Virus record (IMG/VR): IMGVR_UViG_3300032308_001756
Span: 1 to 34,733 of that record
Direction: 5' to 3' (one strand)
DNA: 34,733 bases
Origin: a virus
Of this stretch, positions 305 through 30,933 are shown piece by piece. The position numbers and the translations under genes were made by a program. The notes under the pieces were generated by a model, which saw nothing but the letters and a program-made list of their open reading frames with translations, searched no databases and was not told where the DNA came from. Numbering within the stretch: the stretch's first letter is position 1; every line of letters begins with the position of its first letter.

Positions 305-3139
305 ATGAATGTAATTAATAATAATAAACTTGGAATAGATTTACCAATTTTTGAAATGTTAAGAGATGCGCAAGGGGGCGCTAGTTCAGCTGTGAGTTCT
401 ACTTGTACTAGCATGAATTCAGTTATGCATGTAAACTTTGGTCGGTTCATTTATTATTTGAATGCAGCTGCGAGTTTTTGGAAATATGATACATGGACAG
501 ACACATATCTTCAGCTTGCTTCACCACCAATAACACCGGCTACATTTTCAACTATGCGCTTTTCTTCGGGGGCTGGAATCGAAGGTAATATAATATCTGC
601 TGGTTCTAACACTGCTTATATACCAGCTTATTTCGGAAAAGCTTTAAAAGGATATGATATATCAATAATCGCCGGAACAGGTGTTGGTCAAAGAAGAACT
701 ATTACTGATGTTGCCGACGCCACTATAGAAGATATAGCAGTGGCAACAACTGTGTCAAACACACTTGGCACATTAAACTTAACAGACGCTACCAAAAACT
801 GGAGAGTAAACCAATGGGTGGGATTTCAAGCTAGAGTTATACAGGGTTCTGGTATAGGACAAGTAAGAAGAATAATTAGTAATAGTATTAATACACTTGT
901 TTTCGGTGATTCCACTTTGTCGGCGTATGAAGTTTTTTGTAACCCTTCTATTTTTTCCCCGGCTATTGCTACAACTGCGGGTTCTCAGACAGTAGTGCAA
1001 ATCGAAGCTTCTATTGTGACGGTGGATACCCCATGGGCAATCACCCCGAATAACACTTCTAGATATAAAGTTGAAGGAGGTACTGTATTTTTAATTTCTT
1101 CTGCTGCCGCAACACCATTTTATACTTTTCAACAATATGACACATTGAGTGATATATGGTATATTAGATCAGCTGTTACTAACAATATAGCTGCCGTTGG
1201 AACAGACGCCTCATTGGAGAGAACGGGTGACCAATCTTCTATATGGGACAGAGGTAGAGTTAGTATATCCGGTACAGTAAATAGTTTATCAGATACCACA
1301 AAAAGTTGGAACACTAACCAGTGGGCCACAGGTAGCAACTCTTATTATGTTAGATTTTGGAGTGGGGAAGGCGAAGGGCAGCAAGCTAAAATATTATCTA
1401 ATACATCTACCACTTTGACATATGAATCTATGTCTGCGGTACCTAATAATAGCACTCAATATTTTATTGATGGATTTGATGCGGGTAAAGCGACAGCCGG
1501 TTCAAATATTTCTATAACTGATTCTTCTAAAAACTGGAGTATTAATAGGTGGAAAAATTATGTAGTTAGAATAGTTAGTGGAAGTGGTAACGGCCAGGTA
1601 ATTCCTATTTTATCAAATAACTCAAGTTCAATAAACTTTTACAGGACTTCTTCTGCTGTATTAGATAGTACTTCTGTATATAATATAACAGCAGACCCGG
1701 ATAAACTTTATTTAACTTTGGGTTCAAATACCACGTTCAATATTTTAAATCTGACAGATGATTTACTGACATTAGGAAGAATAGAAGATAGTGGTGTAGC
1801 TTGTAATGCGTCAGTTAGGTTAGGGGCTAATAAACAACAGGCAATAACTTCATTAGTTTTTACCGGTACTTCCGCAACGGCATCAATGGCTGTAGCACAT
1901 AACTATAGAATTAGTCAATCTGTAACTGTTCGTGGGGCAACAGACGCAAACTTCAACGGCACTTTTACTATAACTGGTGTGCCTAGTACAACGACCATTC
2001 AGTACACTATGGCAGGAACACCTGTGTCAACCACATTAGTGGGTTCTCAAACAACTACCACTTTATTCGATGCCACTAAAAACTGGGTGACTAACCAATG
2101 GGCGGGATTTATTATTTACATGAATACTAGTGCTATGACTGCAGCAAGTGGTCTTGTTAATGGTCAAAATATGATTATATTATCAAATACTGCAAATACT
2201 ATAACTTTTAATTCACCGAATACTGCGCCCACAAATGGGGTGACTAGATACGTTATAACTAGAAGAGATACAATAGGAAACATGTTTTCAGGTTTTGCTT
2301 CCGGAACACAGTCTACTACTCTTCTGACAGATGTTAATACAGCATTTACTGGTTCTGCTTCAATTGCTGGTAATAATATGACTGTGACGGCTATAACTAG
2401 TGGTTATTTAGGAATAGGTTCTATGATAACTGGTAGTGGTATTTTAACGGGTTCGTTTATCACCTCTTTTGGACCGAATACTTTTGGTGGCACCGGATCA
2501 TATACAATATCAGTATCACAGAGTTTTGCTCTTGGACCTATATCCTCATCAGGATGGATGACAAACTTTCATGCTGGTAGAAGGGTCAAGATTATTTCGA
2601 CTCAAGGACAAGGACAAGAAGCTTCGATAACAAGTAATACCGCTAACGCATTAACATTCGGTGCAATAACAACTGCTCCTGGCAACGTAAGTTCATCATA
2701 TTCTATATTACAGCAACCCGCAAGAGGTACTGGGATAGAATTCAACTGGGGATGTAATACTAGTGACCCTAATTTGAAAGGAAGAAGAATGTTTATACCT
2801 AGAGGTGGAGGTATAGCTAATATTGATTATATTGATATACCTACAGATAAAGTGGAACCTATGGTTATTACTCCGCAAAGTGAAACTTGGACTACTGGAA
2901 CTATGTGGACATATGACGGTGATGATAGGATATATTTTACTAAAGATGCTACCATGAGATTTTATTATATGGATATTGTTACCAACACTATCTATGGCGC
3001 TGGTTTCGCTCCTTTTGGGACTGGTGCGGCTATTATAGGTAATAGAATGGAAGTGTTTTCTACTCCAGACGGTTTAAAATATTTATGGTTTGTTAAACAT
3101 ACATCGGCAAACGTTATGAGATCAATGTTATACTATTAA
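305..3139 (+). CDS. Large repeat-built virion protein (944 aa)
   Basis: A Ser/Thr/Asn/Gly-rich protein without cysteine clusters or membrane segments. It contains at least four clear copies of a module of about 40 residues that starts with (L/I)xDxxKxW-xxNxW, continues with a strand of the type VRIxSGxGxGQ, and ends with ILSNxxxTLxF. The copies begin near residues 159, 329, 405 and 587, with a weaker fifth copy near 749 (WMTNFHAGRRVKI). Repeated beta-rich modules of this kind are typical of tail, baseplate or fibre proteins. The C-terminal 120 residues (from about 820) are non-repetitive. It lies directly upstream of the small-protein/sheath/tube block. The exact structural role is not determined. 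Confidence 0.75.
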   Translation: MNVINNNKLGIDLPIFEMLRDAQGGASSAVSSTCTSMNSVMHVNFGRFIYYLNAAASFWKYDTWTDTYLQLASPPITPATFSTMRFSSGAGIEGNIISAGSNTAYIPAYFGKALKGYDISIIAGTGVGQRRTITDVADATIEDIAVATTVSNTLGTLNLTDATKNWRVNQWVGFQARVIQGSGIGQVRRIISNSINTLVFGDSTLSAYEVFCNPSIFSPAIATTAGSQTVVQIEASIVTVDTPWAITPNNTSRYKVEGGTVFLISSAAATPFYTFQQYDTLSDIWYIRSAVTNNIAAVGTDASLERTGDQSSIWDRGRVSISGTVNSLSDTTKSWNTNQWATGSNSYYVRFWSGEGEGQQAKILSNTSTTLTYESMSAVPNNSTQYFIDGFDAGKATAGSNISITDSSKNWSINRWKNYVVRIVSGSGNGQVIPILSNNSSSINFYRTSSAVLDSTSVYNITADPDKLYLTLGSNTTFNILNLTDDLLTLGRIEDSGVACNASVRLGANKQQAITSLVFTGTSATASMAVAHNYRISQSVTVRGATDANFNGTFTITGVPSTTTIQYTMAGTPVSTTLVGSQTTTTLFDATKNWVTNQWAGFIIYMNTSAMTAASGLVNGQNMIILSNTANTITFNSPNTAPTNGVTRYVITRRDTIGNMFSGFASGTQSTTLLTDVNTAFTGSASIAGNNMTVTAITSGYLGIGSMITGSGILTGSFITSFGPNTFGGTGSYTISVSQSFALGPISSSGWMTNFHAGRRVKIISTQGQGQEASITSNTANALTFGAITTAPGNVSSSYSILQQPARGTGIEFNWGCNTSDPNLKGRRMFIPRGGGIANIDYIDIPTDKVEPMVITPQSETWTTGTMWTYDGDDRIYFTKDATMRFYYMDIVTNTIYGAGFAPFGTGAAIIGNRMEVFSTPDGLKYLWFVKHTSANVMRSMLYY

Positions 3140-3160
3140 TCATAACAATAATTAATCAAA

Positions 3161-3322
3161 ATGACCGTCAACGAAATAGTAATTTTACTAGAGAATAAAA
3201 TATACAAATTAAACGTATTAAGAAATCTATTTTTCAATAATGGGGACCTTGAAAGTTTGATAAAAATAGATAAAGAAATAATAGAAACACAAGACGCTTT
3301 AGATAGAATAAAAAATTGTTAA
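3161..3322 (+). CDS. Small hypothetical protein (53 aa)
   Basis: ATG start 21 nt after the preceding stop, preceded by an A-rich leader (attaatcaaa) like those of neighbouring genes. The protein starts MTVNEIVILLENKIYKLNVL and has an acidic, helix-prone C-terminal half ending in KNC. It has no recognisable motif. Its position inside the tail gene block and between two real genes supports it as a gene, although it is short. Function unknown. Confidence 0.55.
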   Translation: MTVNEIVILLENKIYKLNVLRNLFFNNGDLESLIKIDKEIIETQDALDRIKNC

Positions 3323-3328
3323 TAAAAA

Positions 3329-3360
3329 TTTGGTTTTCTTAATATTTTATATTATATTTG
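3329..3360 (+). promoter_or_regulatory. Bacteroidota-type promoter (TTTG-N20-TATATTTG)
   Basis: TTTG at 3329-3332 and TATATTTG at 3353-3360 are separated by exactly 20 nt, matching the known Bacteroidota primary-sigma consensus TTTG / TAnnTTTG. Transcription would start a few bases before the ATG at 3373, which also argues that the TTG at 3358, inside the -7 box, is not the start codon of that gene. Confidence 0.7.
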
Positions 3361-3372
3361 TATAAAAAATCT

Positions 3373-3606
3373 ATGTTAAAATTAGTTGAAATAGCGAAGG
3401 CTTGGATTATAGAAATGGATCCAACTGAAGAACAGCAAAAAATAGCTGAAGAAAGATTAACAATTTGTCAAGGTTGTGATTCACTGAAACAAGAACAAAA
3501 TACCGGAGTATATTATTGCGGTATATGTTATTGTCCCATTAAAAAAAAGATATACAGCCCTTTACCGGGTAAAGATGCTTGCCCATTAGCTAAATGGAAA
3601 GATTAA
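3373..3606 (+). CDS. Small zinc-ribbon-like protein (77 aa)
   Basis: The start is placed at the ATG at 3373 because the upstream TTG lies inside the promoter. Cysteines form two pairs plus two extra: C32-x2-C35, C49-x2-C52, C54 and C70 (in DACPLAKW), a pattern expected of a small zinc-binding fold. The N-terminal 30 residues are helical and acidic (EMDPTEEQQ). Similar short cysteine-rich proteins are common beside tail genes of large marine phages, but their role is not known. It has its own Bacteroidota-type promoter, so it may be expressed independently of the late genes. Confidence 0.7.
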   Translation: MLKLVEIAKAWIIEMDPTEEQQKIAEERLTICQGCDSLKQEQNTGVYYCGICYCPIKKKIYSPLPGKDACPLAKWKD

Positions 3607-3617
3607 AATAAAAAGTC

Positions 3618-3875
3618 ATGAAAAAGTTAACAGAACAAGAGTTATTAGAACTAAAAAATCTTAGACAAGAACATTATAGCACAGTATATGATATTGGCGA
3701 TGTTAATGTTAAAATAGAAGAGTACAATAAATTAATTCAAGAATTAGTAGAAGAAAAGACTGTATTATTGGGTAAATATGCTAACATATTACTCAAGGAA
3801 CAAGAGATGGCTAAGGGACTTTCCACCAAATATGGAGAGGGTCAAATAGACGTGGATACAGGAGAAATATCGTAG
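3618..3875 (+). CDS. Coiled-coil small protein (85 aa)
   Basis: Highly charged and predicted helical across residues 3-70 (LTEQELLELKNLRQEHYS..., IEEYNKLIQELVEEKT), ending in a GEGQIDVDTGEIS tail. Proteins with this plan, a coiled coil plus a short glycine/acidic tail, occur in T4-like marine phages as hypothetical proteins. Starts 11 nt after the zinc-ribbon gene and so is likely co-transcribed with it. Its location just before the sheath gene suggests a role in tail assembly, but that is inference. Confidence 0.65.
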   Translation: MKKLTEQELLELKNLRQEHYSTVYDIGDVNVKIEEYNKLIQELVEEKTVLLGKYANILLKEQEMAKGLSTKYGEGQIDVDTGEIS

Positions 3876-3914
3876 TTCAAGCTAAATGTTATTTAATTTT
3901 TGATTACATTTTTT

Positions 3915-3924
3915 GATATTTATA
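3915..3924 (+). promoter_or_regulatory. Putative late-promoter motif GATATTTATA before the sheath gene
   Basis: GATATTTATA lies 42 nt upstream of the sheath ATG. The same or nearly the same 10-mer precedes the tail tube gene, the 468-aa coiled-coil gene and the minus-strand gene at 8982-9380. Recurrence upstream of late genes is the only evidence; there is no experimental support. Confidence 0.45.
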
Positions 3925-3966
3925 ATAGTATTAATAGATTCAATTTAATTAAATAATATATTTAAA

Positions 3967-6237
3967 ATGCCAGAACAAATAATTTCACCCGGTGTTTATC
4001 AAACTGAGAACGATCAATCATATGTACCCCCGGGTCAAGCAGACGCCGGTTTAGCCGTAGTTGGGCCCACAGTTAAAGGTGCTGCCTTTGTTCCCACCGA
4101 TATTACATCGTATTCTGAATACGTGGCCGCTTTTGGAGCTGGCGGTGATACATACGTTCCTCAAACTGTTTTTAATTATTTACAAGCAGGAAATAGTGTA
4201 AAAGTTACTCGTGTGTTAGGTAACGGTGGATGGCAGTATGATACTACCAACAAATTAGTTGCTGTAGTATCTAGTTCTGTTATATTGGCTGTTATGTACC
4301 CATCTAAAAATGAGAACTCTACTACTTCAAATTTGAATAACACTCGTTTTTCAACCTTGCTTCCAGGTAGCTCCAGCTTTAATAGTCTTCGTTTTGAACT
4401 TTCTGGTTCAACCACAGACGTATTGAAATATGTTACTGCTTCTTTTAATCCCGCTGATAATAACTATATAACTAAAGTATTAGGTACAGATGCAAATTAT
4501 CAGACTTCATCTGCTTTTCCTTATTTATTCTTTGGTAATTTTATCACAAGTTCAGTTGGAGTTGGTAGTTACACAAACTCTAGTGCTTCTTTAGTACTTA
4601 GCACCACTAGCTGTACTTTCACTAGTTCATTCCCCGGTGGTTACGACCATGCACAAACACCTTGGATTATATCCGATGGTGGAATTAAATTGTTTAAATT
4701 CCATCACTTATCAGATGGTTTCCAAAGTAATAAAGATATTAAAATCTCGCTTTCTAATATAACTAAATATAGCAGCAATAGTGTTTATTCTACTTTTAAC
4801 GTCTTAATTAGAGACGCTAAAGATACGGATAAAAACCAGTCTGTATATGAGCAATACATAGGAGTTACTTTAGACCCAAATTCACCTAATTATATAGCTA
4901 GAGCTATCGGTGATAGATATTCTAGATACGAGTATACTACTAATAAGGTGATCGATTATGGTAATTATAGTGCCATATCTGACTACATTCGTATAGAAAT
5001 GGATGGTGGTGTAGACGCCGGTGCTGTTTCTCCCAACGTTATACCCAATGGATTTGAAGCTGTTTATGAGCCTATTGCGGGCTTTGGAACAAACTTCCTT
5101 CCTTCTGCCTCAATGATACAGAGTAATACTTCATCTATAGTTTATTCTGGATTTGATTACGCTAATACAGATAACGTTTATAACTACTTAAATCCGATTC
5201 CAACTCAAGCTGGCGTTGGAAGAAATGCTAATTTCTCTATCATATCTCAATTTGATAATAAATTTACAGTTCCTTTCCAAGGTGGAACCGACGGAATGAA
5301 CTACAATGTCATTAAGAAAATGGGTGCAAATATTGCCTCAAACGGTACCAATTTGTTTGGATTTAATCTATCTACAAGTACAACTGCCGGTAGTGTGGCC
5401 TATAATACCGCTTTCAATATACTTTCTAATACTGAGATGTATAGATTCAAATTGCTGACGGTTCCTGGCGTATTAGAGCAGTACCACTCAGCTGTAACCC
5501 TCCTGGCTCAAACCATGGTAGAAAACAGAACTGATGCCGTTTATTTGAGAGATTTGACGGGTGTTGACCAAACTATCGCAACTGCTGTTGCAACTATATC
5601 AGGTGTTGATTCTAGCTACAGTGCTACTTACTATCCTTGGGTTCGTGTTAAAGATATAAATTCTAATAGAGAGATATATGTTCCACCTAGTGTGGTTGTA
5701 CCTCAAGCTTACGCTTACAATGATAAAGTGGCAGCTGAATGGTTTGCTCCTGCTGGATTGAATAGAGGTGGATTGGGTGGTGTTATCGATACTAGAATTC
5801 GTTTAAGTAAATCTGATAGAGATACTTTGTACGCTAGTCGTATCAACCCGATTGTTAAGTTCCAAGATTCTAACGTTGTGATATGGGGTCAAAAAACTCT
5901 TCAAGTTAGAGAAACCACATTGAACAGAATAAATGTTAGACGTTTGTTAATTGAACTGAGAGACTTCATTGGTAATTCTTCTAGAAACTTTGTATTCGAA
6001 CAGAATACATTAGCTACCAGGGATAAATTCTTAGCAATTGTTACTCCTTACATGGAATCAGTACAATCTAGACAAGGTCTTTATGCATTCAGAATTCAAA
6101 TGGACGAAACTCTGAATACTAATGATGTGATTGATAGAAATCAATTGGTTGGTAAAATATACATTTCTCCGACTAAAACTATCGAATTCATCTTGTTAGA
6201 ATTCAACATTCAACCGACCGGTTCAACGTTTGTATAA
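3967..6237 (+). CDS. Tail sheath protein (contractile tail, gp18-like)
   Basis: 756 residues. The N-terminus (SPGVYQTENDQSYVPPG, then AVVGPTVKGAAFVPTDITS and YLQAGNSVKVTRVLG) is the characteristic opening of contractile-tail sheath proteins. The C-terminal 200 residues carry the conserved sheath core, with NREIYVPPSVVVPQAYAYND, GLNRGGLGGV, VIWGQKTLQ, VRRLLIELRDFIG and a final strand ending TGSTFV. The middle section is phage-specific and Ser/Asn-rich. Sheath subunits polymerise around the tube and contract on infection. The tube gene follows 52 nt downstream, the usual order. The length is somewhat above T4 gp18 (659 aa), consistent with inserted surface domains. Confidence 0.95.
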   Translation: MPEQIISPGVYQTENDQSYVPPGQADAGLAVVGPTVKGAAFVPTDITSYSEYVAAFGAGGDTYVPQTVFNYLQAGNSVKVTRVLGNGGWQYDTTNKLVAVVSSSVILAVMYPSKNENSTTSNLNNTRFSTLLPGSSSFNSLRFELSGSTTDVLKYVTASFNPADNNYITKVLGTDANYQTSSAFPYLFFGNFITSSVGVGSYTNSSASLVLSTTSCTFTSSFPGGYDHAQTPWIISDGGIKLFKFHHLSDGFQSNKDIKISLSNITKYSSNSVYSTFNVLIRDAKDTDKNQSVYEQYIGVTLDPNSPNYIARAIGDRYSRYEYTTNKVIDYGNYSAISDYIRIEMDGGVDAGAVSPNVIPNGFEAVYEPIAGFGTNFLPSASMIQSNTSSIVYSGFDYANTDNVYNYLNPIPTQAGVGRNANFSIISQFDNKFTVPFQGGTDGMNYNVIKKMGANIASNGTNLFGFNLSTSTTAGSVAYNTAFNILSNTEMYRFKLLTVPGVLEQYHSAVTLLAQTMVENRTDAVYLRDLTGVDQTIATAVATISGVDSSYSATYYPWVRVKDINSNREIYVPPSVVVPQAYAYNDKVAAEWFAPAGLNRGGLGGVIDTRIRLSKSDRDTLYASRINPIVKFQDSNVVIWGQKTLQVRETTLNRINVRRLLIELRDFIGNSSRNFVFEQNTLATRDKFLAIVTPYMESVQSRQGLYAFRIQMDETLNTNDVIDRNQLVGKIYISPTKTIEFILLEFNIQPTGSTFV

Positions 6238-6289: not shown

Positions 6290-6781
6290 ATGCCAATATT
6301 AGACGCCAATACAGAAATGTTAGGTCAATTATTCGAACCGATGTTGCAGCACAGATTCATCGTTTACTGCGACGGTATCCCATCATTCTTAATTAAAAAA
6401 TTGGATGGTCTGGGATTCGACGATGGTGAGGTTACTATTGATCATATTAACTCATATGTTAAATTCAGAGCCAAGAGACGTTGGAATGATATTAACATGA
6501 GTTTATATAATGCAGTTAGTCCATCCGGTGCGCAAGCTATGATGGAGTGGGCGAGATTACAATATGAAACTGTTACTGGTCGTGCCGGTTATGGTGATTT
6601 CTATTGGAAAGATTTGACTTTCAGAGCTATTGACCCCGTAGGTAGTGTTGTAAACGAATGGATTATAAAGAAAGCTTTTATTAAGAATATTTCTAATTTC
6701 GGTTCATGGGATTGGAGTGCTGATGAATACACAACTATCGATTTTGTATTAGCTAATTCAGGATGTATATTAAATTTCTAA
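6290..6781 (+). CDS. Tail tube protein (gp19-like)
   Basis: 163 residues, the usual size of the T4 gp19 family. Features typical of the fold are visible: an N-terminal LFEPMLQHRFIVYCDGIPSF segment, a central MSLYNAVSPSGAQAMMEW helix, and a C-terminal half with DPVGSVVNEWIIKKAFIKN followed by GSWDWSADEY. These proteins form stacked hexamers that make the inner tube through which DNA passes. It follows the sheath gene and is followed by a strong terminator, so the sheath-tube pair ends this transcription unit. Confidence 0.93.
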   Translation: MPILDANTEMLGQLFEPMLQHRFIVYCDGIPSFLIKKLDGLGFDDGEVTIDHINSYVKFRAKRRWNDINMSLYNAVSPSGAQAMMEWARLQYETVTGRAGYGDFYWKDLTFRAIDPVGSVVNEWIIKKAFIKNISNFGSWDWSADEYTTIDFVLANSGCILNF

Positions 6782-12992: not shown

Positions 12993-13035
12993 AAAAATTA
13001 GGCATTTTTTTTAATCGCCTTTTAATAAATTTTTA

Positions 13036-13068
13036 CCCTTTTAGTTGTATAGCTAAAGGGGTTTTTTA
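13036..13068 (+). terminator. Rho-independent terminator bounding the RNA island on the left
   Basis: CCCTTTTAG (13036-13044) pairs with CTAAAGGGG (13053-13061), 9 bp with one G-U, and a TTTTTT run follows. It isolates the upstream gene cluster from the promoter arrays. Confidence 0.88.
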
Positions 13069-13205
13069 TTTGGGGGGTATGAATTTAGAAAGCATTTAAT
13101 GTCGTATATACGTATATATTGATGGTAGTCGAAAAAATAGCCTCGCAAAGAAGAGTGAGGTGCGCGATCCCAAATGTTAAAATTTTGTTAATAGAGCTAC
13201 AAATA

Positions 13206-13296
13206 TTAACACTTTTTTAACGAAAATTGTTAACAAACTTTAACAAAATCTTTTTTGATTTTAACATTTTTTAACGCAAAATTATTTGTATATTTG
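13206..13296 (+). promoter_or_regulatory. Promoter module 1: six phased TTAAC boxes plus TATATTTG
   Basis: TTAAC occurs at 13206, 13217, 13230, 13240, 13261 and 13271 (spacings 11, 13, 10, 21, 10). TATATTTG, matching the Bacteroidota -7 element, begins at 13289, 18 nt after the start of the last box. There is no TTTG at the -33 position; the last two boxes occupy that zone. This suggests that a DNA-binding protein lying on one face of the helix replaces or assists -33 recognition. A short hairpin, GTAGG/CCTAC (13315-13329), would lie in the leader. Confidence 0.65.
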
Positions 13297-13337
13297 TATT
13301 GTTGAAAGGGAATAGTAGGCACTACCTACACACAATT

Positions 13338-13418
13338 TTAACATTTATTTAACATTTGGTTTTAACAATACTTTAACATTCGTTAACATTTTTTAACACA
13401 AAAATTGTTGTATGTTTG
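13338..13418 (+). promoter_or_regulatory. Promoter module 2: six phased TTAAC boxes plus TATGTTTG
   Basis: TTAAC occurs at 13338, 13349, 13362, 13373, 13383 and 13393 (spacings 11, 13, 11, 10, 10). TATGTTTG begins at 13411, again exactly 18 nt after the start of the last box, as in module 1. The segments around the last two boxes and the -7 element are nearly identical in the two modules, so this is a tandem duplication. The leader downstream carries a 9-bp hairpin, AGGTAATAT/ATATTGCCT (13438-13461). Confidence 0.65.
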
Positions 13419-13556
13419 TAAGGTGTTAGGGTAACAAGGTAATATATACCAATATTGCCTACCCACAACGATACAGATAGTTAATTCACACGTTGTATCA
13501 ACTTTTATTGCAGGTTTGACCTACCTTATTGGGTATTAAACAGCCCGATTATTCAT

Positions 13557-14165
13557 ATGAGTGATTCAATTGAAGCTAGTAACGAGCTTACGTTACAAGT
13601 AGTAGGAAAAGCCAAAGGGGTAGAAACTGTTTTCACTATCCCACCTGTTGACCTGTCTAATGTTGATAACAAAGACAACAAGCCAACGAAGTTAATTTCG
13701 GAAGCACTGAAGTCATTGTCTAATGCATTGGGTAAGCAGCGGTTGACTGATTGTCACGTGGTAGTAGGTTGGAGGGGACGTAAGTCATCCTTTGCCATCA
13801 AGCCATCAGACGCATTCAATCGGGTAAGTCGCGGTATGTATGTATCTCTATCAACGGTTCTGTTCCCACAGAATGCGTATGAGTACAACACGAACAAACA
13901 TCAAGACCCACTTGTAGTTTTAATCGCGCGCATCTTTGGGTTGAAAAGTGAAAACGGAGTATCTTTTCTTGAGTTCCGCACCGCAATCAAATTCAAATTT
14001 GACGAGGTAGAAACCATTGAGAAGATTCAAGAGATTCAGGCACAGCGTGAACTTTTGGAAAACTCCCCCTTGCCTCAACTGTTGGCACAACTGAAGGATG
14101 TTCGCAAGGCATTCAAAGAAAGGCTGAAAGAATTGCAGGCATTACCGGCTCCTACTACGGCTTAA
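13557..14165 (+). CDS. Unknown protein encoded ahead of the giant RNA (202 aa)
   Basis: Starts about 140 nt downstream of promoter module 2. The protein is soluble, with an N-terminal beta-rich part (LTLQVVGKAKGVETVFTIPP), a central segment with VVVGWRGRKSSFAIKPSDAF and LVVLIARIFGLKSENG, and a C-terminal coiled-coil helix (about residues 150-195, IEKIQEIQAQRELLEN onward) ending LPAPTTA. I recognise no family. Its GC content and codon choice (CGC, CTG, GGG) are clearly higher than in the neighbouring AT-rich genes and resemble the RNA region that follows, which suggests that the two arrived or evolve together. It could bind that RNA, but this is inference. Confidence 0.7.
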   Translation: MSDSIEASNELTLQVVGKAKGVETVFTIPPVDLSNVDNKDNKPTKLISEALKSLSNALGKQRLTDCHVVVGWRGRKSSFAIKPSDAFNRVSRGMYVSLSTVLFPQNAYEYNTNKHQDPLVVLIARIFGLKSENGVSFLEFRTAIKFKFDEVETIEKIQEIQAQRELLENSPLPQLLAQLKDVRKAFKERLKELQALPAPTTA

Positions 14166-14696
14166 CAGCCGCCCCCTCAAACATTAGTGTTTATCTGTTT
14201 CGCTAACAGGAGGGGGGCTACAGGTTAACCATCCCTGTAAAATGTAGCACCACCATCGCTACATTCAAGGAAGTGTGTTTGTGTAAATGAAAAGAGGGCT
14301 TTCGAACAGCTCTATGACAGGGGCTGCATATTGTGGGCTAAAAGGTGGGGCTACATCATATACCAATGATGCCACTAATAACCCGTGCGACACGTGGCAC
14401 ATACCTAACAAATGTGTGTTCATAAGTGTGTAGTCGCACTATCCTAGAGGATGGAACAATGCCAAGTTCCTAATGAGGTGACCATTCGCATACCAGTGAA
14501 TGACTAACCATCTCAGTACCTTGTTTGACAGGTAGTGATAGATTACATCTCTTATCCCGTTGGAAGCACAGCAATCTGCAGACTCGCAGAATCAATAGTA
14601 CAGTGGTGTACTCCCCCGGGACGTAAAGGCCAAGGGAGACATATGCCTATGCAGGTCGTATGTCAGTCTTTACAATGTGTGGGAAAATCGCTAGTT

Positions 14697-14727
14697 CCTC
14701 TATGCTATACTAGGCATGGGGGTTTTC
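14697..14727 (+). terminator. Internal terminator-like hairpin in the RNA region
   Basis: CCTCTATGC (14697-14705) pairs with GCATGGGGG (14714-14722), 9 bp with three G-U pairs and an 8-nt loop, followed by TTTT-C-TG-TTTT. If active, it would define a first RNA of about 560 nt after the CDS and leave the downstream part to read-through or a separate start. Confidence 0.45.
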
Positions 14728-15477
14728 TGTTTTACGTTATACGTATTACAGCTACTTTTAGTAGGGCACACGCGGGGCAGGTACATGCAAACTAATAGCC
14801 ATTATACAATCGATTCGGAACAACCTACTAAAAAATTAAACAACCCACGTGCATGGAATTATCCGCCTTGCGTTTCCTGTTTTTTGCCTATCATAGCAAA
14901 ATCTAAGCAGTTAATGTAAGGGGGCTAAGATATTTTTATATCGTCATTTCCCTGCATGAGAAATCCTTTGCAAAGGTACTACAAGTGGAATGTAGTATCA
15001 ATGATAACACTAAGGTAGTGAATACGATAAATATGTGCGTATGGGTAATCATAGCCTACAGGTTTGGCTATTCCCCAGAATATGCCCCACTGATTCTTAA
15101 AAGCAACGTCATAGCCCAATGACGGTGAATTAGTTCGGGACTTGATTACCAATGAATATATGAGCTTGTTGGTATAGCTGGTGGCTTCGTACTGTAATAT
15201 GGTGAGGGGAATATATCACCGAATGAGTACGTCGTAGGAACCCAAAGAAAGAAAACGGGTATGAGGGATTCTATCCGTATTTTGCTATTGTTGTGTATGT
15301 CTGCACACATTAGTTTTTCAAGAGAAAACACGTAAGACAATATACATTATATACCTATGCTTATAGGGCTGCGTAATTTATTATAATTACAGCCATAAAA
15401 TAAAATAAGGCATATATAGGTATTATTATGTATAGAAAAATAGTTAGTATGAATTTAGTTTTATGCTAATTATTAGG

Positions 15478-15535
15478 CGGGGTAGATGGTCAAAGCCGGC
15501 TTAACCGGTACTTCGGTTCGATTCCGAATACCCCA
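15478..15535 (+). ncRNA. Minimal tRNA-like structure (no D arm) at the end of the RNA region
   Basis: GGGGTA (15479-15484) pairs with TACCCC (15529-15534) as an acceptor-like stem. TTCGG-TTCGATT-CCGAA (15512-15528) is a perfect T arm with the conserved TTCRA loop. Only 27 nt lie between them, and they hold one hairpin, GCCGG-CTTAA-CCGGT (15495-15509), instead of separate D and anticodon arms. At about 58 nt this is too short for a normal tRNA. It could be a tRNA mimic recognised by CCA-adding enzyme, RNase P or RNase Z, or a decayed tRNA. A further hairpin, CGACGC/GCGTTG, follows (15536-15550). Confidence 0.6.
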
Positions 15536-15587
15536 CGACGCATTGCGTTGATATATATTTGTTTGTTGGGGTTTAAGTTTGGTTGAT

Positions 15588-15627
15588 GGAGGGAGTTGGC
15601 AGACCAATATGCCACTCCCTTTTTCTT
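15588..15627 (+). terminator. Rho-independent terminator closing the RNA island
   Basis: AGGGAGT-T-GGCA pairs with TGCC-ACTCCCT (one bulged T) around an 8-nt loop, followed by TTTTTCTTTT. Together with the terminator at 13036 it brackets the promoter arrays, the 202-aa gene and the RNA as one unit. Confidence 0.88.
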
Positions 15628-19268: not shown

Positions 19269-19271
19269 CAT

Positions 19272-19379
19272 AGTCAGGTGGCGGAATTGGTAACCATAAG
19301 AGAAGCAAAGCTAATTAGTGTTGTTGTTGTTTATAAGTTGACCTAAGTAGAAGTGGTAATTAGTTGAGTTACCTAACTA
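19272..19379 (+). tRNA. Degenerate tRNA-like gene (Leu-type framework) with inserted helix
   Basis: The 5' part AGTCAGG-TGGCGGAATTGGT is that of the tRNA-like genes at 27422 and 30475, and 3' CCTAACT (19372-19378) pairs with AGTCAGG except for one mismatch. The interior differs: a 9-bp helix, AGCTAATTA/TAATTAGTT (19309-19317 with 19357-19365), replaces the anticodon and variable region, and the T arm lacks the GGTTCGAATCC core. GGTAAC/GTTACC (19289-19294 with 19368-19373) offers a competing fold. It is likely a pseudo-tRNA or a noncoding RNA derived from a tRNA, ending at the adjacent terminator. Confidence 0.4.
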
Positions 19380-23481: not shown

Positions 23482-23555
23482 GGACTTGTAGCTCAGTTGG
23501 TTGGAGCGCTGGCCTCATAAGCCATAGGTCCCTGGTTCGAGCCCAGGCTGGTCCA
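23482..23555 (+). tRNA. tRNA with CAU anticodon (Met, or Ile2 if modified)
   Basis: 74 nt with a normal cloverleaf. Acceptor GGACTTG/CTGGTCC has one T-T mismatch; the D arm is AGCTC-AGTTGGTTG-GAGC. The anticodon loop is CTCATAA with anticodon CAT on stem CTGGC/GCCAT (outer pair mismatched), and the T arm is CCTGG-TTCGAGC-CCAGG; discriminator A. No CCA is encoded. Sequence alone does not separate elongator Met from lysidine-modified Ile2. Confidence 0.92.
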
Positions 23556-27421: not shown

Positions 27422-27508
27422 AGTCAGGTGGCGGAATGTTGGCCGTCTTAGAGAATGCGAACACTGCTAGAACTCAAGTGTGTACAGGTTCGAATCCTGT
27501 CCTGACTA
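27422..27508 (+). tRNA. tRNA-like gene, class II (Leu-type) framework, anticodon unclear
   Basis: 87 nt. The acceptor stem AGTCAGG/CCTGACT is perfect, the T arm ACAGG-TTCGAAT-CCTGT is perfect, and the discriminator is A. The 5' TGGCGGAAT is typical of tRNA-Leu. The region between is not standard: a GGC/GCC D stem is possible, CTTAGAG could be a loop with anticodon TAG (Leu) but its stem has mismatches, and ACACT/AGTGT (27461-27481) forms a strong helix where the variable arm should be. It is either a divergent tRNA-Leu or a tRNA-derived RNA. Confidence 0.6.
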
Positions 27509-27549
27509 CTAAACATTTTTTATTCATTAACAATCAAAAACAAAAAAAA

Positions 27550-28764: not shown

Positions 28765-28847
28765 GGCTAGGTGGCGGAGTGGGATACGCATGGTAAGTCT
28801 ATTTTATATAGGCTCACCACACACAGGTTCGAATCCTGGACTAGCCG
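28765..28847 (+). tRNA. tRNA-like gene with an extended anticodon arm
   Basis: 83 nt. Acceptor GGCTAGG pairs with ACTAGCC (last pair mismatched), the D arm is GCG...CGC, and the T loop TTCGAAT sits on a CAGG/CCTG stem; discriminator G. The anticodon arm is abnormal: GGT-A-AGTCTAT pairs with ATAGGCT-C-ACC, an 11-bp arm (28791-28817) instead of 5 bp. If the usual 7-nt loop ATTTTAT is read, the anticodon would be TTT, but the framework is not that of tRNA-Lys. Identity unresolved. Confidence 0.55.
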
Positions 28848-28883
28848 CGAATATTTAGCAATTAATAATTTAATATAATAATT

Positions 28884-30474: not shown

Positions 30475-30551
30475 AGTCAGGTGGCTGAATTGGTGACAGA
30501 GGCACTCCGTTAAACAACGGGTGGATGCAGGTTCGAATCCTGTCCTGATTA
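30475..30551 (+). tRNA. tRNA-like gene with a lengthened anticodon arm
   Basis: 77 nt. Acceptor AGTCAGG/CCTGATT, D stem CTG/CAG, and T arm GCAGG-TTCGAAT-CCTGT are all present, with discriminator A. In place of a 5-bp/7-nt anticodon arm, CAC-T-CCGTT pairs with AACGG-GTG around an AAAC loop (about 30500-30522). TAA (Leu) could be read within GTTAAAC only if the upper stem opens. Framework is shared with 27422 and 30796. Confidence 0.6.
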
Positions 30552-30576
30552 CTAATTATTAAAAAATAAAACAAAA

Positions 30577-30795: not shown

Positions 30796-30909
30796 GGTCA
30801 GGTGGCGGAATGGTAGACGCTGAATGATAAAGTAGAGTCCAGACCCAGTTGGAGGAAATTAATTTCGATAGGTGTACAACTAATACAGGTTCGAATCCTG
30901 TCCTGACTA
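30796..30909 (+). tRNA. Oversized tRNA-like gene (114 nt), Leu-type framework
   Basis: Acceptor GGTCAGG/CCTGACT (one G-U) is present, together with a canonical class II D arm GCG-GAATGGTAGA-CGC (30805-30820). The T arm is ACAGG-like, TTCGAAT-CCTGT, with an A before it, and the discriminator is A. Between the D and T arms lie about 65 nt instead of about 32, with GAAATT/AATTTC (30856-30867) and AGTTG/CAACT pairing inside. No 7-nt anticodon loop can be placed with confidence. It could be a tRNA with an insertion, or a tRNA-derived RNA. Confidence 0.5.
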
Positions 30910-30933
30910 CTTAAAATAAAAAAACTAAAAATA

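What the first reader, a model, noticed from the sequence alone, without database searches (positions are those of the whole stretch)
13070..15627. Self-contained island: phased promoter arrays, unknown 202-aa protein and 1.4-kb structured RNA
Between two good terminators (13036 and 15588) lie twin promoter modules, one gene of unusual composition, about 1.4 kb with no credible gene but more than a dozen perfect hairpins, and a tRNA-like fold. GOLLD and ROOL, known giant phage RNAs, also occur near tRNAs and are hairpin-dense, but a Bacteroidota-phage member with its own promoter arrays and an upstream protein gene is not one I recognise. It could be a new giant RNA class or RNA-protein system.
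Basis: partly seen in the sequence, partly recalled or inferred. Interest (0 to 1): 0.92.

Follow-up and report, generated by a model that had tools for sequence, protein, structure and literature searches.

The report
Orphan giant phage RNA with protein
A virus of Bacteroidota-type bacteria carries a self-contained unit with two strong-looking promoters, one protein of unknown family and about 1.3 kb of unusually hairpin-rich, non-coding sequence that matches no known RNA family; it is probably a new large phage RNA, but with no relatives found its structure could not be confirmed by evolution.

Summary
The anatomy is real. Two phased TTAAC-box arrays, each ending in a TAnnTTTG promoter, precede a true coding gene (202 aa, foreign composition). 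About 1.3 kb with no credible gene under three genetic codes follows, then a strong terminator. The non-coding part holds 28 perfect hairpins (stem of 5 or more) against 10.5 expected, never reached in 200 shuffles. It exceeds every other segment of the window and 85 non-coding gaps of other fetched contigs. Folding energy favours the transcribed strand (z -5.0 against -1.9), though other window segments reach z -4.7. It is not GOLLD, ROOL, OLE, tmRNA or a group I intron by Rfam; the same search does find GOLLD, tmRNA and group I introns in other Bacteroidota-type phage contigs, so the negative is informative. The tRNA-like end has a T arm and acceptor but no D stem, and scores far below tRNA cut-offs. 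No relative of protein or RNA turned up in IMG/VR, GenBank phages or bacterial genomes, so covariation, the decisive test, could not be run. Best reading: a horizontally acquired cassette making an unclassified large structured RNA, working like GOLLD/ROOL but not shown to be a member.

The parts
13035..13062 (+). Upstream terminator (boundary; 12-bp stem, T run)
   Evidence: z -2.7
13206..13300 (+). Promoter module 1: TTAAC boxes at 13206, 13217, 13230, 13240, 13261, 13271; -7 element TATATTTG at 13289-13296
   Evidence: Bacteroidota promoter form is established knowledge
13338..13420 (+). Promoter module 2: TTAAC boxes at 13338, 13349, 13362, 13373, 13383, 13393; -7 element TATGTTTG at 13411-13418
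   Evidence: array-plus-promoter pattern found once in the window and 0 times in 100 shuffles
13419..13479 (+). 5' leader hairpin of the P2 transcript
   Evidence: z -3.8 for 13412-13480
13557..14165 (+). 202-aa protein gene, pI 9.1, no known family; foreign composition
14158..15560 (+). Unclassified structured RNA region (first hairpin spans the stop codon of the gene)
   Evidence: hairpin counts and folding; no coding; no Rfam match
14172..14217 (+). CCCCCTC/GAGGGGG helix enclosing one or two hairpins (three-way junction in the centroid)
   Evidence: 14155-14240, z -3.6
14697..14722 (+). 10-bp stem followed by TTTTCTGTTTT: possible internal terminator, could split the RNA
15208..15234 (+). 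5' arm of possible long-range helix with 15536-15558, enclosing the tRNA-like part
   Evidence: duplex -23.6 kcal/mol; 24 of 2743 random pairs as good
15439..15474 (+). 15-bp hairpin with G-U pairs
   Evidence: 15436-15476, z -6.6
15477..15536 (+). tRNA-like element: T arm and acceptor present, D stem absent, 5-nt anticodon-like loop
   Evidence: not called by ARAGORN
15589..15621 (+). Terminator of the unit
   Evidence: (z -3.9)

Best explanation
It is a horizontally acquired, self-contained phage transcription unit. Two tandem Bacteroidota-type promoters, boosted by helically phased T-rich TTAAC boxes (UP-element-like), drive one transcript that carries the 202-aa protein gene and then a large (about 1.3-1.4 kb) structured non-coding RNA ending at a strong terminator. 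The RNA, as the 3' part of this transcript or released from it by processing, is expected to be abundant and to act as a structural RNA in the manner of GOLLD and ROOL (a big folded scaffold or assembly), with the basic co-transcribed protein as a candidate partner. Shown here: anatomy, coding status of the gene, excess of hairpins, absence from known RNA families. Inferred: transcription, abundance, one RNA rather than several, processing, scaffold function, partnership with the protein.
For: Twin arrays and promoters; hairpin excess unique in the window and highest among 85 non-coding gaps of other contigs; strand-biased folding energy; no credible reading frame, also under alternative codes; gene and RNA both GC-rich in a 32% GC genome, and the relatives fetched around the tail-tube gene lack the island, which suggests a cassette; no Rfam match with working positive controls. 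Precedent: in phage ICP1 the most abundant transcript is an orf-less RNA of about 800 nt, compared there with GOLLD and ROOL in length (PMC7567579); ROOL is as abundant as 16S rRNA in one strain and both ROOL and GOLLD form RNA-only cages (PMC12286853). A second unclassified 1.4-kb structured RNA lies in contig L107.
Against: Single sequence: no homologue, hence no covariation. Folding energy alone is not unique in the window. A terminator-like hairpin at 14697-14722 could cut the RNA in two. Unlike typical GOLLD and ROOL it does not lie in a tRNA island (nearest tRNA at 23482). No transcription data. The AlphaFold model of the protein is too poor (pLDDT 49) to suggest RNA binding.
Confidence: 0.5

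Rival explanations
1. Several smaller RNAs rather than one: a 0.55-kb RNA ending at the internal terminator-like hairpin (14697-14722), and a downstream RNA with the tRNA-like end, separated by termination or by tRNA-type processing.
For: Terminator-like site at 14697-14722 with a T-rich tail; both halves are hairpin-rich on their own (z 4.9 and 5.0) and GC drops from 46% to 35% between them; tRNA-like element at 15477-15536.
Against: No promoter of the TAnnTTTG type between 13420 and 15550 on the + strand; a predicted 9-bp helix 14381-14389/15038-15046 joins the two halves (prediction only).
Confidence: 0.2
2. A long structured 3' untranslated region that stabilises or regulates the mRNA of the 202-aa protein, with no separate RNA function.
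For: The first hairpin spans the stop codon, and the only promoters found lie upstream of the gene.
Against: 1.3 kb of dense structure is far more than mRNA stability needs; known large phage RNAs of this look are independent RNAs (PMC12286853).
Confidence: 0.12
3. A member of GOLLD or ROOL too diverged for the covariance models.
For: Size, hairpin density, phage context; GOLLD occurs in other Bacteroidota-type phage contigs.
Against: No match up to E 10 in a focused search, while L095 and L106 score 288 bits. Rfam's GOLLD model has 416 positions, and PMC12286853 calls the 3' region universally conserved.
Confidence: 0.08
4. A replication or partition site: phased boxes as iterons, the protein as their binder, the rest non-transcribed structure.
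For: Two arrays of boxes at about helical spacing upstream of a small basic protein.
Against: Both arrays stand at a fixed distance from a TAnnTTTG element, and similar TTAAC-plus-TAnnTTTG arrangements occur upstream of ordinary genes in Bacteroidota genomes (L083, L087); folding energy is biased to the transcribed strand.
Confidence: 0.05
5. Decayed foreign genes without function.
For: Foreign composition; no conserved reading frame.
Against: Decay does not create a z 7 excess of perfect hairpins with intact promoters, intact gene and intact terminator; the three longest ORFs have no Pfam match.
Confidence: 0.05

Closest known systems
GOLLD RNA (Rfam RF02032)
   Same: Large, hairpin-dense, phage-borne, no ORF; occurs in other Bacteroidota-type phage contigs fetched here (L095, L106)
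   Different: No covariance-model match in the window; not in a tRNA island; co-transcribed with a protein gene behind twin promoter arrays
ROOL RNA
   Same: Large, ornate, phage-borne
   Different: No covariance-model match up to E 10; twice the length of the 659-nt ROOL solved in PMC12286853; not near tRNAs
ICP1 orf-less abundant transcript (about 800 nt; PMC7567579)
   Same: Large non-coding phage transcription unit outside tRNA islands, of no named family in that paper
   Different: No sequence comparison made here; ICP1 infects Vibrio; no co-transcribed protein gene described in the passage read
Unclassified 1.4-kb RNA in phage contig L107 (about 2701-4090, minus strand)
   Same: GC-rich, strand-biased folding (z -5.9 against -1.9), TAnnTTTG promoter, terminator, no Rfam match
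   Different: No significant sequence similarity to the window RNA (best local score also reached by shuffles); no protein gene; lies next to tRNAs and tmRNA

Membership tests
GOLLD (RF02032) | Match to the covariance model of the conserved region | tested here: not met
   No match at gathering cut-off or up to E 10; positive controls L095, L106 at 288 bits
GOLLD (RF02032) | Location near tRNA genes (typical) | tested here: not met
   Nearest tRNA at 23482, 8 kb away
GOLLD (RF02032) | RNA-only 14-mer cage | not testable with these tools
   Needs cryo-EM; feature described in PMC12286853
ROOL | Match to the covariance model | tested here: not met
   no ROOL positive control was seen
OLE | Match to the covariance model | tested here: not met
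   no OLE positive control was seen
tmRNA (RF00023) | tRNA-like domain plus tag reading frame, model match | tested here: not met
   positive controls in L039, L107, L106, L139
Group I intron (RF00028) | Conserved catalytic core, model match | tested here: not met
   positive controls in L050, L045, L056, L095
tRNA (RF00005) | Cloverleaf with D arm at 15477-15536 | tested here: not met
   No D stem; not called by ARAGORN or RF00005
Evolutionarily conserved structured RNA (any class) | Covarying base pairs across homologues | not testable with these tools
Element E of other phages (model R1) | Match to model R1 | tested here: not met
   Best window score 10.4 bits, E 1.6

The most novel reading that the evidence does not exclude
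A new class of giant phage RNA that works as a ribonucleoprotein: the co-transcribed 202-aa protein binds the RNA and the two form one assembly, moved between phages as a cassette with its own very strong twin promoters.
Probability: 0.2. Interest if true: 0.85.

Novelty: new variant of a known kind. Interest (0 to 1): 0.57.

Why it matters
Large ornate RNAs are few, their functions in phages are unknown, and GOLLD and ROOL were recently shown to build RNA-only cages. A further class that comes with its own protein gene and dedicated strong promoters would give a handle on function (a genetic partner and a defined transcription unit) that GOLLD and ROOL lack. Related phages appear rich in unclassified structured RNAs, so Bacteroidota phages may be a good place to look for more.

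Tried and rejected
Homologues of the 202-aa protein: none in IMG/VR (two scans), 84,980 species genomes, 395 genomes of one Bacteroidota class, GenBank phages, plasmids, Pfam, PHROGs, NCBIfam, PADLOC, PDB; the peptide-pattern scans see only close relatives. Homologues of the RNA: none by distant blastn, by nhmmer over all fetched loci, or in genomes; two 32-33 nt hits in bacterial genomes judged chance, as nothing beyond the short stretch matches and no tRNA lies there. Neighbour genes as anchors: no relative found, so synteny across the island could not be traced. Promoter sequence as anchor: pattern scans gave no homologous unit. Similarity of the window RNA to the L107 RNA: rejected, not above shuffles. 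Internal repeats as a source of covariation: none useful in the RNA. AlphaFold of the protein without an alignment: pLDDT 49, not used for fold search. Folding z-scores on 150-nt windows: only weakly separated from the rest of the window; hairpin density is the robust statistic.

Full report
What the window is. The window is a 34.7-kb IMG/VR virus record, a fragment. Its tail sheath is nearest to Microcystis phage Mel-JY01 (40% over the whole length) and Flavobacterium phage immuto (48% over half), and its promoters have the Bacteroidota form TAnnTTTG (the consensus is established knowledge). Relatives of its tail-tube-like protein (6290-6781) were found in 29 IMG/VR contigs. None of the loci fetched around that gene carries the island, and 15 of these records searched whole lack the 202-aa protein.

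Boundaries and promoters. A terminator closes the upstream gene (13035-13062) and another closes the island (15589-15621). Between 13206 and 13420 lie two modules, each of six TTAAC boxes at spacings of 10, 11 or 13 bp (one gap of 21), the last box ending 13 bp before TATATTTG (13289) or TATGTTTG (13411). The modules share a 38-nt repeat. A search for three boxes plus TAnnTTTG finds only module 2 in the window and nothing in 100 shuffles. Arrangements of the same kind, with fewer boxes, stand before ordinary genes in a Flavobacteriaceae and a Sphingobacteriaceae genome (L087, L083). I therefore read them as strong host-type promoters with upstream activating boxes, not as replication iterons; that reading is inference.

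The protein gene. The 202-aa ORF has coding statistics (frame score z 4.9; no ORF of that length in 2000 shuffles of 13407-15560), but its third-position GC (0.44) is foreign to the window (0.18-0.32 in the genes compared). It is basic (pI 9.1), has no family in Pfam, PHROGs, NCBIfam or PADLOC and no credible match among solved structures, and no relative was found in any collection. An alignment-free AlphaFold model is unusable.

The non-coding part. From the stop codon to about 15560 no reading frame is credible under table 11, TAG=Q or table 4. Perfect hairpins with stems of at least 5 bp number 28, against 10.5 +/- 2.7 in dinucleotide-preserving shuffles (0 of 200 reach it); with stems of at least 6, 9 against 3.2 (1 of 200). 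The z of about 7 is far above every other 1310-nt segment of the window tested (highest 3.4) and above 85 non-coding gaps in other fetched contigs, some of which contain tmRNA with a group I intron or GOLLD. Folding energy is better than shuffles on the transcribed strand (z -5.0) and less so on the other (z -1.9), but other window segments reach -4.7, so energy alone would not convince. Single elements are strong: the hairpin 15439-15474 (z -6.6), the hairpin 14241-14265 (z -4.1), the junction at 14158-14240 (z -3.6). A possible long-range helix 15208-15234/15536-15558 (about the best 1% of random pairs) would enclose the tRNA-like element, making it a part of the RNA rather than a free tRNA.

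The tRNA-like element. It has a canonical T arm (TTCGG-TTCGATT-CCGAA) and a 6-bp acceptor, a short anticodon-like stem-loop and no D stem. ARAGORN and RF00005 do not recognise it; tRNA-Sec scores 19 bits against a cut-off of 47. It is a resemblance, not a tRNA.

Known families. No Rfam family reaches its cut-off in the island, and a permissive search to E 10 shows no GOLLD, ROOL, OLE, tmRNA or group I intron. The same search recognises GOLLD (288 bits, L095 and L106), tmRNA and group I introns in other Bacteroidota-type phage contigs, so for those three the negative is meaningful. One of these contigs, L107, also carries an unclassified 1.4-kb RNA with promoter, terminator and strand-biased folding (z -5.9 against -1.9), without significant similarity to the window RNA.

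Mechanism. The most likely account is a cassette that makes, from two strong promoters, one transcript with the protein gene and a large structured RNA, the latter working as a structural RNA as GOLLD and ROOL are thought to (PMC12286853). Phage ICP1 offers a precedent for a very abundant orf-less RNA outside tRNA islands (PMC7567579). Steps shown: anatomy, coding, structure excess, lack of family. Steps inferred: expression, abundance, unity of the RNA, function, partnership with the protein. A terminator-like hairpin inside (14697-14722) keeps open that there are two RNAs.

Limits. All structural evidence comes from one sequence. The search tools for IMG/VR need exact peptide or DNA words and see only close relatives; metagenome contigs could not be scanned.

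Noticed in passing
82 IMG/VR contigs, loci L089-L170; also L054 around 14198-14217, L050 15502-15521, L046 1058-1077, L039 13677-13696 (-): A ~100-nt structured element (TGACACGCACGGCAACC...TACCTCACNGTGCGTAGGTAAG...) with very strong covariation (11 of 18 predicted pairs with compensatory changes) and no Rfam match. In 21 of 82 contigs it sits inside a tRNA-Leu-like gene in place of the anticodon arm, in 24 next to such halves. Looks like a new widespread phage RNA family; absent from the window and not found as DNA in GenBank phages.
   Followed up: partly
window 27422-27509, 28765-28848, 30475-30552, 30796-30910; 5' half only at about 19271-19300: Family of tRNA-Leu-like genes in the window sharing GTCAGGTGGCGGAAT...CAGGTTCGAATCCTGTCCTGACTAC (one variant GGCTAGG) but with odd or missing anticodon arms; the 30796 copy is 114 nt long and resembles stretches of L101 and L151.
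   Followed up: partly
L107 about 2701-4090, minus strand: Unclassified 1.4-kb non-coding region, GC-rich, hairpin-rich, with TAnnTTTG promoter and terminator, beside tRNAs and tmRNA. Candidate second large phage RNA.
   Followed up: partly
L095 5677-6083 (+), L106 3770-4174 (-): Clear GOLLD RNAs (288 bits) in contigs of Bacteroidota-type phages that also carry the tRNA-embedded element.
   Followed up: no
L050 11679-11902 (+), L045 15082-15305 (+), L056 19595-19810 (-), L095 7035-7258 (-): Phage tmRNA genes apparently interrupted near the 3' end by a group I intron; the related contig G003 (49984-50393) has the uninterrupted gene.
   Followed up: no
L069 6972-9825: 2.85 kb without an ORF of 75 aa and hairpin-rich; may be an alternative genetic code rather than RNA.
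   Followed up: no
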